Shown in pieces: positions 1-8,297 of a stretch of DNA of 8,297 nucleotides. The position numbers and the translations under genes are program-made. Every line of letters begins with the position of its first letter. The first letter of the stretch is position 1. The notes beneath the pieces were generated by a model that saw only the letters and a list, made by a program, of their open reading frames with translations, was not told the DNA's origin and made no database searches. Source of the DNA: Acidobacteriaceae bacterium (lineage in GTDB: Bacteria; Acidobacteriota; Terriglobia; Terriglobales; Acidobacteriaceae); the NCBI GenBank assembly GCA_025929125.1, contig JAICMT010000050.1, forward strand, positions 1 to 8,297, in the 5' to 3' direction.

Positions 1-1845
1 GGTGGACAGCAGCCAATCTCCGGCGCGCATATCTACCTTCTCGCAGCGAATACCACCGGCAATGGAGGTCCTGGAATCGCGCCATCGAGCAGCAATGCGT
101 CCTTGTCGCTGCTGAGTGCGGGCAGCACCGGAACAGCGGATTCGATTGGCGCTTATGTCACGTCCAATGCAAGTGGCGCCTTCTCCATCACGGGTGACTA
201 CACCTGCACTCCGAATACTCAGGTTTATCTCTATGCCCTGGGCGGCAGTTCTGGCGCGGGAAACAATCCGTCTTCCGGCCTGATGGCCGCTCTGGGGAAC
301 TGCCCAAGTACCCACAATTTCGCTTCAGCCACTCCGACGCTTGCGGTGAATGAGCTGACGACCGTCGCTGCAGCGTACGCCATGGCAGGCTTTGCCAGTG
401 ACGCCACTCACGTTTCCAGCTCGGGGAGCACGGCGGCGACGACTGGCATCAAGAATGCATTTGCGAATGCCAGCAATCTGGTCGACGTTGCTACCGGCGC
501 GGCACGCACGGCAACACCGGGAGGCAACGGAACGGTTCCCCAGCAACTGCTGAACACGCTTGGGGACATCCTTGCCAGCTGCATCAACTCCAGCGGCTCG
601 GTGACCGGGCCGCCGAATACGACTGCCTGCTACACGCTCTTCAGTAATGCAGAGTTCAGCGGTTCAAGCGGAACCGCTCCCACGGATACGGCGAGCGCAG
701 CCATCAACATGGCGCACAATCCCGGGTCCAATATCGCCGCGCTTTTCGGTCTGCCGACCGCACAGGCTCCGTTTTCTCCGCAGCTCAGTACGGCACCCAA
801 CGACTTCACCGTGGGCATCAGCTACACCGGAGGCGGAGTGGATGATCCCTCGGCCATCGCGGTCGATTTGGCTGGAAACGTCTGGGTGACCGATACCGGA
901 GGAGCGGGATCGATTACCGAACTGGCGCCGAATGGAAATGCGCTCTCGCCGGCTGGCGGCTATCTCATCTCCACTACGACCGGCCAGTTCCACGGGATTG
1001 CGATTGATCCCAGTGGAAACGTATGGCTCCCAGCGGAAGCGGATGGAACACTCATAAAGGTCTCCAGCACTGGTTCGGTGAGTGCCACTTACACCGGGGT
1101 GAGTATCAAGAATCCATGGAATGTGGCGGTAGACGGATCCGGAAACGTGTGGGCCTCGGACTGTGGCAACTCCTTCTGCAGCGGCCCTTACACCGTCGAC
1201 GAGATCTCAAACGGAGGCACGTTGCTCTCGGGCACCACGGGATTTACGGGCGGCCTGAAGGTGCCGCTCGGCATGGCCATCGATTCCTCCGGAAACGCCT
1301 GGGCGGCAAGCCGCGACAGCTCCACCCTTGTAAAGTTCTCAAGCTCAGGGACGTTGCTCTCAGGAACCGGCTTCACCGGCGGCGGCGTGAACAAGCCTGT
1401 AGCCCTGGCAGTCGACCACTCGGGCAACATTTGGGTGGCAAGCTATGGAAGCTCAACCAGCACCACCAACGTGACTGAGTTTGCCAGCAATGGTACGGCG
1501 GTATCCCCCTCCAGCGGATATCAGGCAGCAGGCATCGATTCGCCAGATGCGATTGCGATCGACGGCGATGGTCATGTCTGGGTTGCTTGCCTCGGAGTGC
1601 TGGGGTTCGATGTGCAAAGCTCGGTTGTGGAACTGGCGAGCGATGGATCCCTGCTCTCCCCTTCCACCGGATACCAGGGCGGCAGCCTTCGCTCACCCTT
1701 CGGCATCGCGATCGATGGCTCTGGAAACGTGTGGACTGCTAACCCCTATGACTCGACTGTCACCCAGTTGATCGGCGTTGCCACCCCTGTCGTCACTCCG
1801 CTGTCAGTTGGGGTGCAGAACAATACCTTGGGTGTCCGGCCGTAG
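1..1845 (+). CDS. Exported seven-bladed NHL/Vgb-like beta-propeller protein, 5' partial
   Basis: The frame is open from base 1 to the TAG at 1843-1845, giving 614 visible residues; the N terminus lies outside the window. A TTG at 103 is not a credible start, because the 34 residues before it (containing [16 protein letters not shown]) align with residues just after the lipoprotein leader of the minus-strand paralogue. About 45 residues including a signal peptide are therefore probably missing. Visible residues 1 to about 265 form a Ser/Gly/Ala-rich module with cysteines at 69, 101, 194 and 210. Residues 268-595 carry seven repeats of the form A-[IV]-D-x-x-G-N-x-W, with the Asp near 289, 336, 378, 428, 472, 521 and 572, which fits a seven-bladed propeller. 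Such proteins act outside the cytoplasm, often in binding, and no catalytic motif is visible. Its function is unknown. It converges on its paralogue with 15 bp between stops and no terminator-like hairpin. Confidence 0.85.
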
Positions 1846-1860
1846 CTAAGCTGCAATTGT

Positions 1861-3735
1861 TCAAGGCGTGCTGGGCGGCCCAACCAAAGGTGTGCGCACC
1901 GGCGCGGCAATCCCAACGAATTCCGTCACAGTGTTGCTCCCTAGGTTCGATATCCAGAGATTGCCGCTCGCATCCACAGCAATGGAGTAGGACTGGCGCA
2001 TGGCCGTGTGCGGACCGTAGCCGCTGGAGGGTGAAAGCGCCGTACCCGGAGTGCCACCGCCCGCGCCTGCGAGCTCTGTGATGGAAGAGCCGCGATAGTT
2101 CGCGATCCAGAGGTTGCCGCCACCGTCGATAGCAATCGCCTGCGGATGGCTGAGGCCGCCTCCGGTGTAGCCCGTGGAGAGAATGGCTCCCCCTGCGGAG
2201 ACTTCGCTGATGCTGTCGCTATAGAAATTCGCGAGCCATACATTTCCGGTCCGGTCGATAGCAAGGTTCGAGGGAGCATTGCAGCAGGCGTAGCTGGTGA
2301 ACTGAGATCCGTCCATCGCGACCCGCGTCACAGTCCCACTGCCCTGGTTGGCCACCCACGCATTGTGGTTGCCGTCGATCGCGACAGCTACCGGAAAGGC
2401 AAGTTGCGGCGATGCATAGCCGGAGCTTCCGGAGAGCGCCTGCCCCGTGCTGCTCAGGTGTGTCAGGTGCGAGTTGCCATAGTCGACCACCCATGCCGAA
2501 CCATCGGAATCCACGTCAATCGAGATCGGATAATTGAGTCCCCCACTGGTAAAACCTGCCACCCCTGCGATCGATTGCCCGCTGGGATTCAGCACGCTCA
2601 CGCTGTTGCCGGCCAGACCGGTGCTGGGCTCGTTGGGGATCCAGGCATTGTTGCTCGCATCAATAGCGAGTCCGTAAGAGGCACTCAACCCAAACCCAGT
2701 AATGCCATTGCTGAATACCGGCTTGCCCAGAGGCGAAAAGAGCGATGCAGCATTCCCGTAGTTCGCCACCCAGACGTTCCCATTGCCGTCCACGCCGAGA
2801 CCGGTGGGAAGGTTCAACCCGCCGCCTGAGTAATCGACATAGAGCGTCAGGTCGGCCGGACCGGAGCTGAGCCCTGGAGCAAACACGGGAGAAGATAAGG
2901 CCAGCGAGTAGACCGCCGCGACGTTTGCGGCAGGATTGTGGACGATGTTCAGGGCAGCATCCAGAGTGTCCGCCGGCACAGCTGAGCCGCTGCGCGTAGC
3001 CGCCGTAAGCAACGGAGTGCAGCCGGAACCTGCCGAGACTCCACAGGCACTGAGTGCGTTCGCGAGGGTATTGATCGTAGCTGCAGGCGAACTGCCGTTC
3101 GACGCGAACGAACTTCCAGGACTTACTCCAGTGCTGACATCGGCGAGTGCAGCCGCCGTATCGAACGCATTCTCGAGTCCCGCGGCATTCGTTGCGCTTG
3201 CGCCGAGATTTCCGCCGGGAGCCAGAAACTGGGCGAGCGCGTAGACTCCGGTCGCGGTCGTGACCTCATTGACCACGATGGTCGCGGGGAGCTTGCTGCA
3301 GGGGCCCAGTGCAGTAAAGTAAGCAATCGCAGCATTCGCCGAAGCAGCTGCCCCTGCTTTACCGCCGCGCGCAATCGCATAAACCTCTGACCCGGAACCC
3401 GGACAGGTATAGCCGGAAGAGATGGAGAACGAGCCGGCGGAGTCTGTGGTCACCGCCGGCGTAAGTAACGCGGTGCCTGCTGAGCCATTGCCGGAGCTTC
3501 CTGCGGAGTAGAGCTGCACGGACGCGCCAATCAGCGGTTGCGCGCCCGCAAAGGCTTTACCCGCGATTGCCGGGCCTGAGTAGCCGCCGACCGGCGGATT
3601 CTGCACGACACTCGTGCTTGTGCTTGTGCTCGGGGAAGAGGAGCCGCCGCAGCCAAGCAGTCCTGTAATGGCGGCTGAGAGAATCAGCCACCCGGCCGAA
3701 ACGGAAGCGGAATGCAGCGCCGGACGGCGGCTCAC
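1861..3735 (-). CDS. Seven-bladed beta-propeller lipoprotein, third gene of the exosortase operon
   Basis: 624 residues. The GTG start at 3735 overlaps the TGA of the exosortase gene (GTGA, 3735-3732) and has a GGAGAG Shine-Dalgarno-like sequence at 3752-3747, 11 nt upstream. The start is supported by a proper leader: basic SRR, a hydrophobic stretch (residues 14-28) and a lipobox LLG-C29, then a Ser/Thr-rich linker (31-45). Residues about 55-125 resemble a small Ig/carboxypeptidase-regulatory-like beta domain (pattern TDSAGSFSI). Cysteines 111, 146, 231 and 239 match those of the plus-strand paralogue. Residues 295-610 hold seven repeats with the Asp at 316, 359, 409, 454, 494, 537 and 588. 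Gly at +2 after C29 does not give the Asp inner-membrane retention signal, so outer-membrane anchoring is plausible. It lacks a C-terminal helix and basic tail, so it is probably not itself an exosortase substrate. Its role is unknown; the overlap suggests expression tied to the sorting system. Confidence 0.9.
   Translation of the reverse strand: MSRRPALHSASVSAGWLILSAAITGLLGCGGSSSPSTSTSTSVVQNPPVGGYSGPAIAGKAFAGAQPLIGASVQLYSAGSSGNGSAGTALLTPAVTTDSAGSFSISSGYTCPGSGSEVYAIARGGKAGAAASANAAIAYFTALGPCSKLPATIVVNEVTTATGVYALAQFLAPGGNLGASATNAAGLENAFDTAAALADVSTGVSPGSSFASNGSSPAATINTLANALSACGVSAGSGCTPLLTAATRSGSAVPADTLDAALNIVHNPAANVAAVYSLALSSPVFAPGLSSGPADLTLYVDYSGGGLNLPTGLGVDGNGNVWVANYGNAASLFSPLGKPVFSNGITGFGLSASYGLAIDASNNAWIPNEPSTGLAGNSVSVLNPSGQSIAGVAGFTSGGLNYPISIDVDSDGSAWVVDYGNSHLTHLSSTGQALSGSSGYASPQLAFPVAVAIDGNHNAWVANQGSGTVTRVAMDGSQFTSYACCNAPSNLAIDRTGNVWLANFYSDSISEVSAGGAILSTGYTGGGLSHPQAIAIDGGGNLWIANYRGSSITELAGAGGGTPGTALSPSSGYGPHTAMRQSYSIAVDASGNLWISNLGSNTVTEFVGIAAPVRTPLVGPPSTP
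3614..3630. repeat. Short hexamer repeat (GTGCTT, about 2.8 copies)
   Basis: The plus strand reads GTGCTTGTGCTTGTGCT. It encodes the alternating Ser/Thr run (residues 37-42) in the linker right after the lipidated cysteine of the propeller lipoprotein. The repeat is in frame (6 bp), so slippage would only lengthen or shorten the linker by Ser-Thr pairs. Confidence 0.6.
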
Positions 3736-5327
3736 GGACGTGTCAGCTCTCCAAGGTTGACCGCACTCACAAAGGACGCCACCGACGCGGCAAGTTGGAT
3801 TCGAGCCTCACCCACCGAAAGGCCCGGCTCCGGCAGCTCCGCCCGGACGATCACGGGCAAGGAGCGCGACGGGTGCCGCAACAGGGACCCGCGGTCCAGG
3901 CGCGAGTAAACCAGGCCGAAGTGCCTCTGTGGAGTGGCGAACTCGTTGCAGTCGCCACCCGAGCACTGGGTAGATGCCTCGAGCGTATACGCTATGCCGT
4001 CGAAGTACTGGGCAGAGTTGAAACTAACCGGATCGCTTGCTGTGGGAAGCGCCATCGGGCCCTGACTCACCGGGTGCTCACCCCGTACGGTGTGGCAGAT
4101 CAGCGGATCGTGCCAGCTGAGCTCCGGTGAAATTCCGATCGCAACGGGTTTGCCGTTGGGCGCCGCATATTCCGCCCATTGGTAGACGACCACCCCGGTA
4201 TCCAGCTTCTCCTCCCAGGTGCGCACCAGAGAATAGCCTCGCAATTCACTGGGAAAGCGCTCTGCTGCACTGCGCAAGAAGACCGTATTCGTGTTGAGCG
4301 CCGAAGCAAATCCCACACCAGCGAGGCAGGCAAACGCTGCCAGTGCCGCCGCGGGGGCCACCGGCAAAACCGGGGGTCGGTTGACCGTGCTGGCAACTAT
4401 CGGCGTCGCCGACTGGCGATCACGCAGGCGGTGAATCACTCCAAACAGAAGGACCGAGGCCAACAGAAACAGAGCTCCGCCAATAATGTAATCGGCGGTC
4501 TCGGCGCGAGACTTGAGCCAGGGCAGGTGCAGCGCGACAACGTAATAGAGGACCAAGAGGCAGAGCCGCAGCAGATTGAAAACATAGCCAAGAACGACGG
4601 CTCCGGCTGCCACCGCGATATTCATATACCAGCGGAAACGATAGATATAGCCCGCCACGATCGCAATCAGCGCCATCGTGATCGAGCCGCGGATTCCATT
4701 GCAGCCCGGCGCAATGAACATTCCAAACTCCGGCGTGAACATCAGCCGCAGGTGGTCAGGCGTGAGCGGCTGCCCCAGATGCATGGCGAAGCCCCGGGCC
4801 ACCTCCGCCGAGAGCGTCTGCAAAGGCAGGTCGACCATCAGGCTGAACGCACGCGGAACAGGATTGGCGAACCAGAGGAAGCAAATGGGAAACAGGGCTG
4901 CTCGCAACAGACGCAGACCGCCGAACATGAGCACAATGCCAGCGGTGCATAACATCAGCGGCAAGGAAACAGGCGGAATCGCAGTGGTCCAGTGCGGCGA
5001 TATCACCAGCAGCAGAATGGAGTGGAGTTGGACCCAGCCAATGGCTGCATTAGCGACAATCAGCGCAAACCCCCACCAGTTGCACTCGACGTTCCAGCCC
5101 TGGCTGCGCCAGGCACGAAGGATCAGAACGAAGCAAACCGGCGGAACGAAGATGCCCACCGACTTCAGCGGATCGCTCGTCCAGGAAGCCCAAAGAAAGC
5201 CCAGGCAGGGCAGAACTGTAAGCAGTGCCAGCGGCGCAACCGACGCATAGAGCCACAGATTCCGGGGAAGACGCGAGGACGGGGCAACCGCCGTGATGAG
5301 ATTGATTGACTGCGATGACGCCGGCAT
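3732..5327 (-). CDS. xrtJ: Exosortase fused to an EpsI-like domain (exosortase J type)
   Basis: 531 residues, ATG start at 5327, beginning 8 bp after the upstream small gene. Residues 24-300 are a multi-pass membrane exosortase/archaeosortase core. The presumed nucleophile is C209 in APGCNGIRG, followed by N251-L-L-R254, the conserved Asn/Arg pair. At the third conserved site, often His in HxxxG, this protein has D279 (DYIIG). A further hydrophobic segment (321-343) leads to an extracytoplasmic C-terminal region (345-531) resembling EpsI/DUF3485: FPSELRGYSLVRTW early, then WHDPLICHTVRG (405-416). Exosortases cut C-terminal sorting signals of exported proteins and are thought to transfer them to a surface acceptor, often linked to exopolysaccharide. 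Here the likely substrate is the 59-residue protein encoded just upstream. The family call is firm. The J subtype and symbol rest on remembered architecture (acidobacterial, EpsI-fused, tiny TM-motif-TM partner) and are less certain. Confidence 0.9.
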   Translation of the reverse strand: MPASSQSINLITAVAPSSRLPRNLWLYASVAPLALLTVLPCLGFLWASWTSDPLKSVGIFVPPVCFVLILRAWRSQGWNVECNWWGFALIVANAAIGWVQLHSILLLVISPHWTTAIPPVSLPLMLCTAGIVLMFGGLRLLRAALFPICFLWFANPVPRAFSLMVDLPLQTLSAEVARGFAMHLGQPLTPDHLRLMFTPEFGMFIAPGCNGIRGSITMALIAIVAGYIYRFRWYMNIAVAAGAVVLGYVFNLLRLCLLVLYYVVALHLPWLKSRAETADYIIGGALFLLASVLLFGVIHRLRDRQSATPIVASTVNRPPVLPVAPAAALAAFACLAGVGFASALNTNTVFLRSAAERFPSELRGYSLVRTWEEKLDTGVVVYQWAEYAAPNGKPVAIGISPELSWHDPLICHTVRGEHPVSQGPMALPTASDPVSFNSAQYFDGIAYTLEASTQCSGGDCNEFATPQRHFGLVYSRLDRGSLLRHPSRSLPVIVRAELPEPGLSVGEARIQLAASVASFVSAVNLGELTRP

Positions 5328-5335
5328 TGCGAGCT

Positions 5336-5515
5336 CTACCGGTTACGCTTGGCGCGGTGGCGCAGCGTGGAGTAGAACGCCGCGGCGGATCCGAGGATCG
5401 CAAGCACAACCGTCGGGTTTTCCGGCGAATCGATGCAACCGTCCTGCGCAAACAAAGGCGTCGTACATCCGAACAGCAGCACGGAAGCCAGGAAGGCAAG
5501 CTTTAAATTGCTCAC
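5336..5515 (-). CDS. Tiny TM-motif-TM exosortase substrate (PExPT/PEP-CTERM-like), 59 aa
   Basis: A 59-residue frame from GTG at 5515 to TAG at 5338-5336, preceded by a strong GGAGGA Shine-Dalgarno at 5530-5525 with 9 nt spacing. Residues 1-23 form a leader (basic K5, hydrophobic 6-16, ending PLFA before QDG), so signal peptidase cleavage after A23 is possible. The sequence LLFGC17 could instead be a poor lipobox. After only seven residues comes PENPT (31-35), then a hydrophobic helix (TVVLAILGSAAAFYSTL, 35-51) and a basic tail with R52, R54, K56, R57 and R59. Motif, helix and Arg-rich tail in that order are the layout of an exosortase sorting signal, here with almost no passenger. It lies 8 bp upstream of the exosortase gene. 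It matches my memory of the XrtJ-associated TM-motif-TM family. If processed at the motif it would release a peptide of about 10 residues, so it may be a carrier, a regulator or a structural part rather than an ordinary cargo. Confidence 0.82.
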   Translation of the reverse strand: MSNLKLAFLASVLLFGCTTPLFAQDGCIDSPENPTVVLAILGSAAAFYSTLRHRAKRNR

Positions 5516-5524
5516 GGTGAATCG

Positions 5525-5530
5525 TCCTCC
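5525..5530 (-). promoter_or_regulatory. Shine-Dalgarno sequence deciding the GTG start of the 59-aa gene
   Basis: The minus strand reads GGAGGA, nearly the full anti-16S complement, 9 nt before the GTG at 5515. It is the main reason for accepting this short GTG-started frame as a gene. Confidence 0.75.
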
Positions 5531-5551
5531 GGATGCGCGATGCGGCTCCTA

Positions 5552-5581
5552 TTATTAGCGAATCCTAAAAAACGGTAACAA
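5552..5581 (-). promoter_or_regulatory. Candidate sigma-70 promoter of the exosortase operon
   Basis: On the minus strand, TTGTTA (5581-5576) is followed after 18 bp by TAATAA (5557-5552). This would start transcription near 5545, about 30 nt before the GTG at 5515, leaving room for the GGAGGA site. The stretch is clearly more A/T-rich than its surroundings. Each element matches the E. coli consensus only in part, and promoter rules in acidobacteria are less well known. Confidence 0.4.
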
Positions 5582-5609
5582 TCTTCCGTCACAGAAGAGA
5601 TACCCAAAG

Positions 5610-5645
5610 AGGTACATCGGACCGCCACAAAAGTGTTATGTACCT
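5610..5645. repeat. 8-bp inverted repeat between divergent operons
   Basis: AGGTACAT at 5610-5617 and its exact complement ATGTACCT at 5638-5645 are separated by 20 bp. It lies upstream of both candidate promoters, where an activator or shared regulator could bind. No T-run follows, so it does not look like a terminator. Confidence 0.45.
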
Positions 5646-5664
5646 GATCCCGTTGCCAAGCTGT

Positions 5665-5705
5665 TTTGATCGAAGTAGTTGCTGGGCCGTACTATTTCGA
5701 TCAAA
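5665..5705 (+). promoter_or_regulatory. Inverted operator-like repeats around a candidate permease promoter
   Basis: TTTGATCGAA (5665-5674) and its exact complement TTCGATCAAA (5696-5705) are separated by 21 bp, with centres 31 bp apart, about three helical turns. Each arm is itself a near-palindrome (TTYGATCRAA). A possible promoter lies in the same stretch: TTGATC at 5666-5671 as -35, an 18-bp spacer, and TACTAT at 5690-5695 as -10. One arm would then cover the -35 and the other the transcription start, a usual repressor layout. Alternatively the arms form a leader-RNA hairpin. The regulator is not in the window. The repeat is certain; its role is inferred. Confidence 0.5.
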
Positions 5706-5719
5706 GAAATTTCTTGGCC

Positions 5720-5724
5720 GAGGT
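5720..5724 (+). promoter_or_regulatory. Shine-Dalgarno sequence deciding the permease start
   Basis: GAGGT ends 7 nt before the ATG at 5732. It favours this start over the upstream in-frame TTG at 5666, which lies inside the inverted-repeat region. Confidence 0.6.
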
Positions 5725-5731
5725 GCAGTGG

Positions 5732-7354
5732 ATGGGTGGGATCTGGCAGCAGAGGTATGTTCTGGTCGGAAATAGTCTGGGGTGGTCAGCCGCACTGGCG
5801 ATCCTACCGACGTTGTTGCTGCTTTACCTTCTCGCCGTGAAGCGGAAGGCTTCCTGGATCGCGGCGCTCTCCGGACTCGCCGCGGCGCTGCTGCTCGCCG
5901 TAGCCGGATACGGTATGCCCCCGACTCTTGCCATCAGCAGCGCTCTGGATGGAGCCTGCTTCGGCCTGTTCCCCATCTCGTGGATCGTCTTTTGGGCCCT
6001 GGTGCTGTATGAGATCTCAGTCGTTACGGGCAAGTTCGAGATCATTAAGGAATCGATCGGATCGGTGACCTCCGACAAGCGGGTACAGGCACTGCTGATC
6101 GCATTTGCCTTTGGCGCGTTCATCGAGGGCTGTGCCGGCTTCGGTACGCCGGTTGCCGTCGCCGCGGCGATGATGGTGGGCCTCGGCTTCACCTCACTCT
6201 ATGCCTCTTCCCTATGCATGTTGGCCGATACAGCCCCGGTGGCGTTTGGCTCCATCGGCATCCCCATCATCACGCTGGCCGGGGTCACTGGACTTCCACT
6301 CAAAGAGCTGAGCGCGGTCACCGGGCGCCTGACCTTTCCCTTCTCCCTCTGCCTGCCCGCCTACATTGTCCTGGTAACCAGCGGCGCGGGAGCAATGGCC
6401 GAGATCTGGCCGGCTGTGGTGACCTGCGGAGTGGTCTTCGCCGGAATTCAGTTCACGATCTCCAACCTGATCGGTCCGCAACTGGCCGATATTCTTAGCT
6501 CCCTTTGCGCCATGGGAGCACTGGTTTTGCTGCTGCGGTTCTGGAAGCCCGCGGTCAACAGCGAATACACCATGCAACTTCGCAGTGACCGCCCGCACCA
6601 CACTGGGCGCGAGATTTGGGACGCTTGGCTGCCCTACACCCTCCTGGTTGTCTTTGTGCTTCTCTGGGGCCAGCCGAGCATCCTGGCGCATCTCGATGCG
6701 GTATCCGTAAAGTTCCCCTGGCCTGGACTTCACAATTTGGTTTTGCGCATGCCGCCTGTGGTTGCCACGCCTTCAAAGTACGGCGCGATTTATACCTTCA
6801 GCTGGCTCTCAGCCTCGGGCACCTCGGCCATGCTGGCCTCGCTGCTTGCGGCGGCGATTCTTCGGATGTCATTGCGCGCGCTTGGTGGGGTTCTCATCTC
6901 GGTCGCACTTAAGCTGATCAAGCCCACCGTAACCGTCTCGGCCATGCTTGGAATGGCGTACTTGATGAACTACAGCGGGGCCACTGGAACACTTGGCCTG
7001 GCATTTGCCGCCACCGGAACTGTCTTTCCCTTTTTCAGTCCCCTGATGGGCTGGCTGGGTGTGTTTCTTACCGGTTCGGACACCTCCTCGAATGCGCTAT
7101 TCGGCAATCTGCAGGTGGTGAGCGCCAGCAAACTCGGTCTCAACCCCGTGTTGGTGGCATCGGCGAACTCGGTAGGCGGTGTCATGGGCAAGATGATCAG
7201 CCTTCAATCGATAGCTGTGGCCGCCGCGGCCACCGGCATGCCTGCTGACGAGCAGGCGCAGCTGTTCCGATTCACGCTGAAGCACAGCATCCTCCTGGCG
7301 GCGCTGGTCGGAGTCGAAACCATGCTCTACGCGTATCTCGCCCGGCCTCACTAA
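5732..7354 (+). CDS. LctP/GlcA-family L-lactate or glycolate permease
   Basis: 540 residues from ATG 5732 to TAA 7352-7354; E. coli LldP and GlcA are about 550-560. An in-frame TTG at 5666 would add 22 residues. ATG 5732 is preferred because MGGIWQQRYVLVGN lines up with the N terminus of LldP (MNLWQQNYDPAGN) and a GAGGT site precedes it. The protein is almost entirely hydrophobic, with many membrane helices. Family signatures are FGAFIEGCAGFGTPVA (127-142), DTAPVAFGSIGIPI (166-179), FPFFSPLMGWLGVFLTGSD (432-450) and GKMIS (486-490). The family imports 2-hydroxy acids (L-lactate, D-lactate, glycolate) with protons across the inner membrane. glcD 78 bp downstream favours glycolate, as with E. 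coli glcA in the glc operon, but sequence alone does not separate the substrates, so no symbol is given. Residue 491 is Leu (GKMISLQS), where LldP/GlcA have Pro (GKMISPQS). Confidence 0.92.
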   Translation: MGGIWQQRYVLVGNSLGWSAALAILPTLLLLYLLAVKRKASWIAALSGLAAALLLAVAGYGMPPTLAISSALDGACFGLFPISWIVFWALVLYEISVVTGKFEIIKESIGSVTSDKRVQALLIAFAFGAFIEGCAGFGTPVAVAAAMMVGLGFTSLYASSLCMLADTAPVAFGSIGIPIITLAGVTGLPLKELSAVTGRLTFPFSLCLPAYIVLVTSGAGAMAEIWPAVVTCGVVFAGIQFTISNLIGPQLADILSSLCAMGALVLLLRFWKPAVNSEYTMQLRSDRPHHTGREIWDAWLPYTLLVVFVLLWGQPSILAHLDAVSVKFPWPGLHNLVLRMPPVVATPSKYGAIYTFSWLSASGTSAMLASLLAAAILRMSLRALGGVLISVALKLIKPTVTVSAMLGMAYLMNYSGATGTLGLAFAATGTVFPFFSPLMGWLGVFLTGSDTSSNALFGNLQVVSASKLGLNPVLVASANSVGGVMGKMISLQSIAVAAAATGMPADEQAQLFRFTLKHSILLAALVGVETMLYAYLARPH

Positions 7355-7358
7355 GCAG

Positions 7359-7415
7359 CCTCCCGGCGCGAGCGGTGCCCGTCGACCCATTCTGCGCGGC
7401 ATGTGCTCCGGGAGG
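7359..7415 (+). promoter_or_regulatory. Inverted repeat overlapping the Shine-Dalgarno before glcD
   Basis: CCTCCCGG (7359-7366) is exactly complementary to CCGGGAGG (7408-7415), which contains most of the GGAGGT Shine-Dalgarno sequence. Inside the 41-nt loop GTGCC (7375-7379) can pair with GGCAT (7398-7402, one G-U pair). The mRNA could therefore hide the ribosome site between the permease and glcD. There is no T-run, so a rho-independent terminator is unlikely. The pairing is visible; the regulatory role is inferred. Confidence 0.4.
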
Positions 7416-7416
7416 T
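7411..7416 (+). promoter_or_regulatory. Strong Shine-Dalgarno (GGAGGT) with ambiguous start
   Basis: GGAGGT ends 3 nt before an ATG at 7420, which opens a 12-codon frame, and 16 nt before the ATG at 7433, which opens glcD. The first spacing is short and the second is long, so it is unclear which start it serves. Confidence 0.55.
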
Positions 7417-7419
7417 AAC

Positions 7420-7458
7420 ATGGAAATTCTGCATGCCCGATTCCGGTATCCTCGCTGA
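7420..7458 (+). CDS. Possible 12-residue leader peptide overlapping the glcD start
   Basis: ATG 7420 to TGA 7456-7458 would encode MEILHARFRYPR. It sits 3 nt after GGAGGT and overlaps the first 26 bases of glcD in another frame. If translated, it could bring ribosomes to the glcD ATG at 7433 or dampen its translation. It may equally be chance, because a frame this short carries no coding signal. Confidence 0.2.
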   Translation: MEILHARFRYPR

Positions 7459-8297
7459 CCTCCGCGCCGCCGTTCCTGACGGGCTAATTACGGCTGCGAA
7501 TGAGCTGCAGACCTACGAGTGTGATGGTCTGACCAATTTCCGCACCCTGCCCGGTGCGGTTGTGCTGCCGCGTACCGCCGAGCAGGTGCAGGCTGTCGTG
7601 CGCGCCTGCGCCCGCCATGGCGTGCCGTTCGTCGCCCGGGGCGCCGGTACCGGCCTGAGCGGAGGAGCGCTTCCCGCGGAGAAGAGCGTGGTCATCAGCT
7701 TCGCCCGCATGAACCGGATCCTGAGGATCGACATCCCCAACCAGAGGGTGGAGGTGCAGCCCGGTGTGATCAACCAGCATGTCACCGATGCCGTCGCACC
7801 CCATGGATATTTCTATGCCCCGGACCCTTCCTCCCAGAGCGTCTGCACCATCGGCGGCAATGTTGCGGAGAACTCCGGTGGCGCGCACTGCCTGAAGTAC
7901 GGCTTTACCACCACCCATGTGCTTGGCATGGATGTGGTGCTGCCGAGCGGCGATATGGTGCAGTTTGGATCCTCTGCACCAGATGCTCCGGGTTACGACC
8001 TGACGGGTCTGTTTGTCGGCTCTGAGGGAACCCTGGGGGTCGCGACCAAGCTCACGCTCCGCATCGTCAAGCGGCCTGAGACGGTGCAGGTGCTGTTGGC
8101 CGCATTCGATTCCATCCGTGCTGCCGGCCAGACCGTCTCCGACATCATCGCTGCGGGAATGCTTCCTGCAGCGCTCGAGATCATGGACCGCCTTTCAGCC
8201 AAAGCCTCGGAGGCGGCAGTACATCCGAATTACCCAGTTTGCGAAGCGTTGCTGCTGGTGGAGCTCGATGGCGCTGCTGCCGAAGTGGCGGCGCAAA
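7433..8297 (+). CDS. glcD: Glycolate oxidase FAD-binding subunit GlcD, 3' partial
   Basis: 288 residues are visible, running off the window; E. coli GlcD has 499. The protein matches GlcD closely and in order: YECDGLTNFRT (28-38), the FAD-binding PCMH glycine-rich loop RGAGTGLSGGALP (69-81), YAPDPSSQ (128-135), IGGNVAENSGGAHCLKYG (140-157), GLFVGSEGTLGV (192-203) and MLPAALEIMD (233-242). GlcD with GlcE and GlcF oxidises glycolate to glyoxylate at the inner membrane, passing electrons to the quinone pool; related enzymes use D-lactate. The N terminus is about 20 residues shorter than in E. coli. ATG 7433 lacks a well-spaced Shine-Dalgarno; an in-frame GTG at 7403 is the only upstream alternative before the in-frame permease stop and has none either. 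It lies 78 bp after the permease on the same strand, probably cotranscribed. glcE and glcF would be expected beyond the window. Confidence 0.92.
   Translation, partial: MPDSGILADLRAAVPDGLITAANELQTYECDGLTNFRTLPGAVVLPRTAEQVQAVVRACARHGVPFVARGAGTGLSGGALPAEKSVVISFARMNRILRIDIPNQRVEVQPGVINQHVTDAVAPHGYFYAPDPSSQSVCTIGGNVAENSGGAHCLKYGFTTTHVLGMDVVLPSGDMVQFGSSAPDAPGYDLTGLFVGSEGTLGVATKLTLRIVKRPETVQVLLAAFDSIRAAGQTVSDIIAAGMLPAALEIMDRLSAKASEAAVHPNYPVCEALLLVELDGAAAEVAAQ

What the first reader, a model, noticed from the sequence alone, without database searches (positions are those of the whole stretch)
5336..5515. Overlooked 59-aa gene that is almost nothing but a sorting signal
A GTG-started frame with a near-perfect Shine-Dalgarno encodes leader, PENPT, helix and Arg-rich tail. 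Normal PEP-CTERM cargo has a long passenger before the motif; here only about seven residues separate the possible leader cleavage point from the motif. Processing would leave a very short peptide. It could be a pilot substrate, a scaffold that is transferred in bulk, or a membrane partner of the exosortase. Short length and the GTG start make it easy to miss.
Basis: partly seen in the sequence, partly recalled or inferred. Interest (0 to 1): 0.75.

Follow-up and report, generated by a model that had tools for sequence, protein, structure and literature searches.

The report
Passenger-less substrate of exosortase J
This 59-residue gene, from a relative of the soil bacteria Granulicella and Edaphobacter, belongs to an already named family: it carries no cargo, reads as a predicted export leader, a cysteine motif and a predicted membrane tail, and is likely cut down to a peptide of about ten residues by the membrane enzyme encoded next to it.

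Summary
The frame is real and lies at the stated coordinates, on the minus strand. It is not overlooked: it scores 78 bits (cut-off 40) against NCBIfam TIGR04200, 'PExPT-CTERM protein', and the next gene is exosortase J (TIGR04199, 534 bits). All 25 XrtJ genomes among 299 of the class also carry a PExPT gene. The motif is under strong purifying selection (median dN/dS 0.12). Not in the finding: a near-invariant cysteine belongs to the motif (81 of 82 distinct hits of a cysteine-free model); a predicted NHL propeller lipoprotein is recurrently linked to PExPT, with or without XrtJ; XrtJ keeps the exosortase Cys and Arg but mostly lacks the usual His. Best reading: a dedicated substrate, doubly cleaved to a Cys-bearing peptide of about ten residues. 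Cleavage and fate are inferred; no biochemistry was done. A new member of a known kind, with useful new context.

The parts
5336..5515 (-). PExPT-CTERM gene, 59 aa, GTG start, stop included
   Evidence: TIGR04200 78.3 bits, cut-off 40; 11 homologues; dN/dS
5525..5530 (-). Shine-Dalgarno-like GGAGGA, 9 bases before the GTG
   Evidence: read
5447..5515 (-). predicted leader, residues 1-23, cut expected before Gln24
   Evidence: by eye; Ala-Gln at this place in 73 of 85 distinct relatives; median dN/dS 0.75
5411..5437 (-). motif Cys27-Ile-Asp-Ser-Pro-Glu-Asn-Pro-Thr35
   Evidence: Gly26, Cys27, Pro31, Glu32, Pro34 invariant in 36; Cys in 81 of 82 hits of a Cys-free model; median dN/dS 0.12
5363..5410 (-). 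hydrophobic helix, about residues 36-51
   Evidence: sequence; helix 34-58 in a low-confidence model
5339..5362 (-). basic tail RHRAKRNR, residues 52-59
   Evidence: sequence; basic tails in relatives
3732..5327 (-). exosortase J (XrtJ), 531 aa, gap of 8 bases to the PExPT gene
   Evidence: TIGR04199 534 bits, cut-off 200; gap
4701..4703 (-). XrtJ Cys209, presumed nucleophile
   Evidence: 25 of 25 XrtJ and 27 of 27 other exosortases
4566..4568 (-). XrtJ Arg254
   Evidence: 25 of 25 and 27 of 27
4488..4493 (-). XrtJ Asp279-Tyr280, where other exosortases have His
   Evidence: Tyr280 in 24 of 25, His in 1; His in 27 of 27 others
1861..3735 (-). NHL-repeat protein, 624 aa, predicted lipoprotein, overlaps XrtJ by 4 bases
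   Evidence: NHL repeats; lipobox Cys nearly invariant in 12 aligned; overlap

Best explanation
The 59-residue protein is a member of the named PExPT-CTERM family (TIGR04200), has no passenger domain, and is predicted to be the dedicated substrate of the exosortase J encoded 8 bases downstream, which would cut it down to a cysteine-bearing peptide of about ten residues. Inferred course: Sec export; removal of the leader after Ala23 by signal peptidase; the helix and basic tail hold Cys27-x-x-Ser-Pro-Glu-Asn-Pro-Thr at the outer face of the inner membrane; XrtJ Cys209, helped by Arg254, attacks at or near PExPT and forms a thioester; the short peptide is then released or handed to an acceptor. 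The likely partner at that step is the NHL propeller lipoprotein of the same gene cluster. Shown: family membership, absence of passenger, near-invariant Cys, gene linkage, selection. Not shown: either cleavage, the transfer, any contact with the NHL protein.
For: TIGR04200 and TIGR04199 over cut-off on adjacent genes. All 25 XrtJ genomes of 299 and all 19 of 41 in the genus sample have PExPT. A PExPT gene is in the fetched stretch of 54 of 65 XrtJ loci. No long cargo with the tag: 38 of 38 strong matches in frames of at most 127 residues. Selection is strongest on the motif (0.12), weaker on helix and tail (0.36), weakest on the leader (0.75), as expected for a leader that is removed. XrtJ keeps Cys209 and Arg254. 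NHL linkage: contiguous trio in 25 of 65 loci in two gene orders; 8 of 20 stand-alone PExPT loci have an NHL gene within 500 bases, 0.3 expected.
Against: XrtJ lacks the usual His in 24 of 25 rows, so ordinary catalysis cannot be assumed. G242, 99% complete, keeps an intact PExPT gene without XrtJ. 11 of 65 XrtJ loci show no PExPT in the fetched stretch. 24 of 65 loci have PExPT and XrtJ without NHL directly downstream, and 12 of 20 stand-alone loci have none within 500 bases, so the NHL partner is not universal. No cut has been observed.
Confidence: 0.55

Rival explanations
1. An uncleaved membrane hairpin: helix, short periplasmic loop, helix. It would be a permanent small subunit or activator of XrtJ, its loop sitting in the active site and perhaps standing in for the missing His.
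For: The JGI name is 'TM-motif-TM protein'; one gene beside one enzyme; XrtJ lacks the His; the model has two helices.
Against: The leader evolves fast (median dN/dS 0.75; ungapped comparison) and ends in Ala-Gln in 73 of 85 distinct relatives, which fits a removed leader. Several genomes carry more PExPT genes than XrtJ genes, for example G091 with 3 and 1, and G242 has PExPT without XrtJ.
Confidence: 0.25
2. A short lipopeptide: the fixed Cys is acylated, as proposed for MYXO-CTERM, and XrtJ only trims the helix, leaving a lipid-anchored peptide.
For: Cys just before the motif in 81 of 82. For MYXO-CTERM a Cys-dependent cut is reported and lipidation hypothesised (PMC11980579, passages).
Against: The Cys is not in a lipobox: the residues before it are mostly Gln-x-Gly. 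No match to a MYXO-CTERM model among NCBIfam families at E up to 1. No acyltransferase gene was searched for.
Confidence: 0.1
3. A small matrix component tied to exopolysaccharide export, as in ordinary exosortase loci.
For: The three SPECPT copies that stand apart from XrtJ lie directly before polysaccharide genes: Poly_export/SLBB in two, a nucleotidyltransferase in one. EpsH genes are nearly always among polysaccharide genes (PMC1569441, passages).
Against: No polysaccharide gene was seen in the window; the recurring neighbour of the cassette is the NHL lipoprotein.
Confidence: 0.1

Closest known systems
PExPT-CTERM protein, TIGR04200 / PF27850
   Same: Length, leader, motif, helix, basic tail, XrtJ next door; score over cut-off.
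   Different: Nothing in the protein itself; the present member uses a GTG start.
PEP-CTERM / exosortase (TIGR02595, EpsH)
   Same: Tripartite C-terminal tag and an exosortase partner.
   Different: PENPT instead of PEP, no passenger, a fixed Cys; ordinary PEP-CTERM proteins have very low Cys (PMC1569441, passages); TIGR02595 did not match.
MYXO-CTERM / myxosortase
   Same: Cys before the helix and an Arg-rich tail (PMC11980579, passages).
   Different: No model match; the enzyme beside it is an exosortase, not a CPBP protease.
AgrD / AgrB (recalled, not fetched)
   Same: Short membrane precursor, Cys a few residues before the presumed cut, membrane Cys endopeptidase.
   Different: No sequence match; no ring has been shown.

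Membership tests
PExPT-CTERM (TIGR04200) | score over the curated cut-off | tested here: met
   78.3 bits, cut-off 40
PExPT-CTERM (TIGR04200) | XrtJ (TIGR04199) in the same genome and next door | tested here: met
   534.3 bits, cut-off 200; gap of 8 bases
PExPT-CTERM (TIGR04200) | cut by XrtJ | not testable with these tools
   needs mass spectrometry of wild type and an xrtJ deletion
Exosortase (Cys-Arg-His triad proposed for EpsH) | Cys and Arg present in XrtJ | tested here: met
   25 of 25 rows
Exosortase (Cys-Arg-His triad proposed for EpsH) | His present in XrtJ | tested here: not met
   Tyr280 in 24 of 25 and His in 1; Asp-Tyr in 61 and Asp-His in 3 of 64 readable loci
PEP-CTERM (TIGR02595) | model match with a Pro-Glu-Pro motif | tested here: not met
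   no match at E up to 1; the motif is PENPT
PEP-CTERM (TIGR02595) | long passenger before the tag | tested here: not met
   seven residues in the window; 38 of 38 strong relatives in frames of at most 127 residues
MYXO-CTERM | model match | tested here: not met
   no MYXO-CTERM model among NCBIfam matches at E up to 1
MYXO-CTERM | lipid on the Cys | not testable with these tools
   needs mass spectrometry
Lipoprotein (the PExPT protein itself) | conserved lipobox Cys | tested here: not met
   Cys17 is shared by close relatives but not by the family
AgrD-type cyclic peptide | thiolactone ring between Cys and the new C-terminus | not testable with these tools
   needs mass spectrometry

The most novel reading that the evidence does not exclude
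Exosortase J is not a protein sorter but a peptide maturase: it excises a Cys-bearing peptide of about ten residues from a cargo-free precursor, and the cysteine built into the motif resolves the enzyme thioester, giving a thiolactone ring in the manner of Agr autoinducers or a conjugate with the co-encoded NHL propeller lipoprotein. That would be a new class of surface or signal peptide in Gram-negative soil bacteria, made by an exosortase without the usual His.
Probability: 0.1. Interest if true: 0.85.

Novelty: new member of a known kind. Interest (0 to 1): 0.42.

Why it matters
Exosortases were inferred largely from gene co-occurrence, and I saw no paper on XrtJ or PExPT proteins. XrtJ with its 59-residue partner is a very small enzyme-substrate pair: the genes lie side by side and there is no cargo to complicate the assay. 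Whether it yields a free peptide, a lipopeptide or a conjugate could be settled by a mass-spectrometry experiment on a deletion strain. The cysteine, the missing His and the linked NHL lipoprotein give concrete predictions for that test.

Tried and rejected
Overlooked gene: rejected, since the family is named. The local Pfam scan found no family for the protein at E up to 0.1; the PF27850 label comes from the precomputed column.

Long cargo with the same tag: sought with a C-terminal-only model in 40 genomes, 26 with strong PExPT hits and 14 without. Besides 38 strong hits there were two weak ones: G000:C210, E 0.003, an ordinary PEP-CTERM esterase-like protein, and G033, E 0.006, a partial match not followed up. 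Candidates were capped at 150 in the richest genomes of that call, and at 20 per genome.

Lipoprotein reading of the PExPT protein: rejected, since Cys17 is conserved only in close relatives. Fusion of NHL and tag: looked for where the NHL gene lies directly upstream of XrtJ; not found. The PExPT gene stands one gene further upstream in L197, L201, L202 and L207.

Structure: XrtJ has no sequence match in the PDB at E up to 1 and no fold match at E up to 0.001 (best 0.02 at TM-score about 0.1, taken as chance). The XrtJ model came as helix and confidence lists only, so the place of Asp279/Tyr280 could not be measured. Promoter and terminator scan of 5300-5800: none found. A first alignment of XrtJ with other exosortases used wrong frames for many rows and was replaced.

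Limits of the counts. In one search the 27 comparison exosortases came from 30 loci through a C[SG]G pattern, which left out L126; L126 itself has Asp-Tyr. Whether Asp279 or Tyr280 stands exactly at the His depends on one gap. In one search, 46 genes were cut out and 43 used, ungapped, 52 codons each; pairs with dS of 1.5 or more were dropped; leader length differences inflate the leader value. In one search the 85 proteins were picked with a pattern that contains the Cys, so Cys conservation is taken. In one search the expectation uses rounded genome sizes and treats loci as independent; counted per genome it is 4 of 13 genomes, P about 8e-5. The samples overlap. Some PExPT genes counted as standing apart from XrtJ lie on short contigs (G316).

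Full report
What is there. On the minus strand three genes run in one direction with almost no space between them: a 59-residue gene (5515-5336), an exosortase of 531 residues (5327-3732, gap 8 bases) and an NHL-repeat protein of 624 residues (3735-1861, overlap 4 bases). The small protein reads MSNLKLAFLASVLLFGCTTPLFAQDGCIDSPENPTVVLAILGSAAAFYSTLRHRAKRNR. GGAGGA lies 9 bases before the GTG (read).

It is a named family. NCBIfam TIGR04200, 'PExPT-CTERM protein' (targ_of_XrtJ), matches at 78.3 bits (cut-off 40), and TIGR04199, exosortase J, matches the next gene at 534.3 bits (cut-off 200). Eleven homologues carry the precomputed label PF27850; five have the JGI name 'XrtJ-associated TM-motif-TM protein' and one the NCBI name 'PExPT-CTERM protein'. 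So the gene is not overlooked as a kind. A search for XrtJ, PExPT, exosortase J and the two accessions returned 23 papers; none of the 20 listed is on this topic by title. Exosortase, PEP-CTERM and Acidobacteria together gave none.

It is a real gene. Among 43 relatives, dN is below dS in 184 of the 185 pairs with dS below 1.5 (median ratio 0.36). By segment the medians are 0.75 for the leader, 0.12 for the ten codons GC..SPExPT and 0.36 for helix plus tail; the other two forward frames give 1.40 and 1.65.

One enzyme, one substrate family. In 299 genomes of the class XrtJ is over cut-off in 25 and PExPT in 26; all 25 are shared and the odd one is G242. In 41 genomes of the genus XrtJ is in 19 and PExPT in 21; the extra two are G242 and the 84%-complete G316. 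G242 is 99% complete, keeps an intact 63-residue PExPT gene, and its only exosortase match is a conventional one. A scan of public genomes by two XrtJ peptide patterns gave 65 loci, 59 of them with titles that name Acidobacteria, among them Granulicella, Edaphobacter and Bryocella. A PExPT gene lies directly upstream in 48 of 65 (one, L213, a weak match), one gene further upstream in 4 and elsewhere in the fetched stretch in 2; 11 show none.

No passenger is the rule. A model of the C-terminal part alone, without the Cys, was run on 40 genomes. It gave 38 strong matches (E of 1.1e-9 or better) in 26 genomes, all in open frames of 127 residues or less. The window's own genome shows the contrast: a GDSL-esterase-like protein with an ordinary PEP-CTERM tag (TIGR02595 21.7 bits, cut-off 16) and an ordinary exosortase.

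A cysteine in the motif. In 36 aligned proteins Gly26, Cys27, Pro31, Glu32 and Pro34 are invariant. With the cysteine-free model over all fetched loci, 81 of 82 distinct strong hits have a Cys within eight residues before the match. Two residues separate the Cys from Ser in 45 of 47 motifs read beside XrtJ, whereas the stretch from the Ala-Gln cut to the motif varies from 7 to 14 residues (73 proteins, 56 of them with 7). So the Cys belongs to the motif. Ordinary PEP-CTERM proteins have very low Cys (PMC1569441, passages). The exception, in L126, goes with an exosortase below the XrtJ cut-off.

An unusual exosortase. XrtJ keeps the Cys and Arg of the triad proposed for EpsH (PMC1569441, passages) in 25 of 25 rows, but the His found in 27 of 27 other exosortases is absent in 24 of 25; Asp-Tyr stands there. 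In the 65-locus set 61 of 64 readable rows have Asp-Tyr and 3 Asp-His. What does the work of the His is unknown.

A third partner. The NHL protein is a predicted lipoprotein: its lipobox Cys is nearly invariant in 12 aligned sequences. In the genus sample the copy beside XrtJ is the best match to the window's copy in 16 of 19 XrtJ genomes; against that, G311 and G139, which have no XrtJ, hold copies at 544 and 452 bits. PExPT, XrtJ and NHL are contiguous in 25 of 65 loci: 21 in the order PExPT-XrtJ-NHL and 4 as PExPT-NHL-XrtJ; L084 has NHL-PExPT-XrtJ. PExPT genes standing apart from XrtJ (21 genes in 20 loci) have an NHL gene within 500 bases in 8 loci, 6 on the same strand; 0.3 is expected from the NHL density of the 13 genomes. 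Linkage kept through changes of order argues for a shared function. Against it, 24 of 65 loci have PExPT and XrtJ without NHL directly downstream, and 12 of the 20 stand-alone loci have none within 500 bases. Three stand-alone SPECPT genes instead lie before polysaccharide genes.

Mechanism. I commit to a dedicated, doubly processed substrate. The leader looks removable and evolves fast; the motif with its Cys is what selection holds; helix and basic tail are the usual exosortase presentation. The product would be about QDGCIDSPENP(T). Archaeosortase work proposes a Cys thioester resolved by an amine (PMC7157517, passages), and MYXO-CTERM offers a precedent for a Cys-dependent cut (PMC11980579, passages). 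Here the substrate brings its own thiol a fixed distance from the presumed cut, so an internal thiolactone, a lipid, or a disulfide to the NHL protein are all possible. None is tested.

Verdict.

Noticed in passing
L126:839-2563: An exosortase below the XrtJ cut-off (83 bits, cut-off 200), also with Asp-Tyr in place of His, has a separate EpsI-like gene and a 64-residue passenger-less SPENPT protein without the Cys. Cargo-free tags may thus reach beyond XrtJ.
   Followed up: partly
L085, L088, L091 (PExPT genes near 8307-8689): Three SPECPT copies far from XrtJ sit directly before polysaccharide genes: Poly_export/SLBB in two, a nucleotidyltransferase in one.
   Followed up: partly
L099 (G242): PExPT is kept while XrtJ and the NHL gene are absent from the usual neighbourhood; XrtJ was not found in the genome.
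   Followed up: partly
L149:835-2250 and G000:C71:9630-10382: The window's genome also has a conventional PEP-CTERM esterase-like protein and a conventional exosortase.
   Followed up: partly
window 1-1845 (+): A second NHL-family protein, cut by the window's edge, ends 15 bases from the end of the first and faces it.
   Followed up: no
window 5666-8296 (+): A lactate permease and an FAD-linked oxidase, the latter cut by the window's edge, are read away from the cassette.
   Followed up: no
L168, L169, L193, L208, L209, L215: XrtJ loci in records titled Rhodanobacteraceae, Verrucomicrobia, Deltaproteobacteria, Gammaproteobacteria or Nevskia; perhaps mislabelled bins.
   Followed up: no
G115, G287, G290: The NHL lipoprotein family is strongly expanded in some genomes: 64, 41 and 36 matches.
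   Followed up: no
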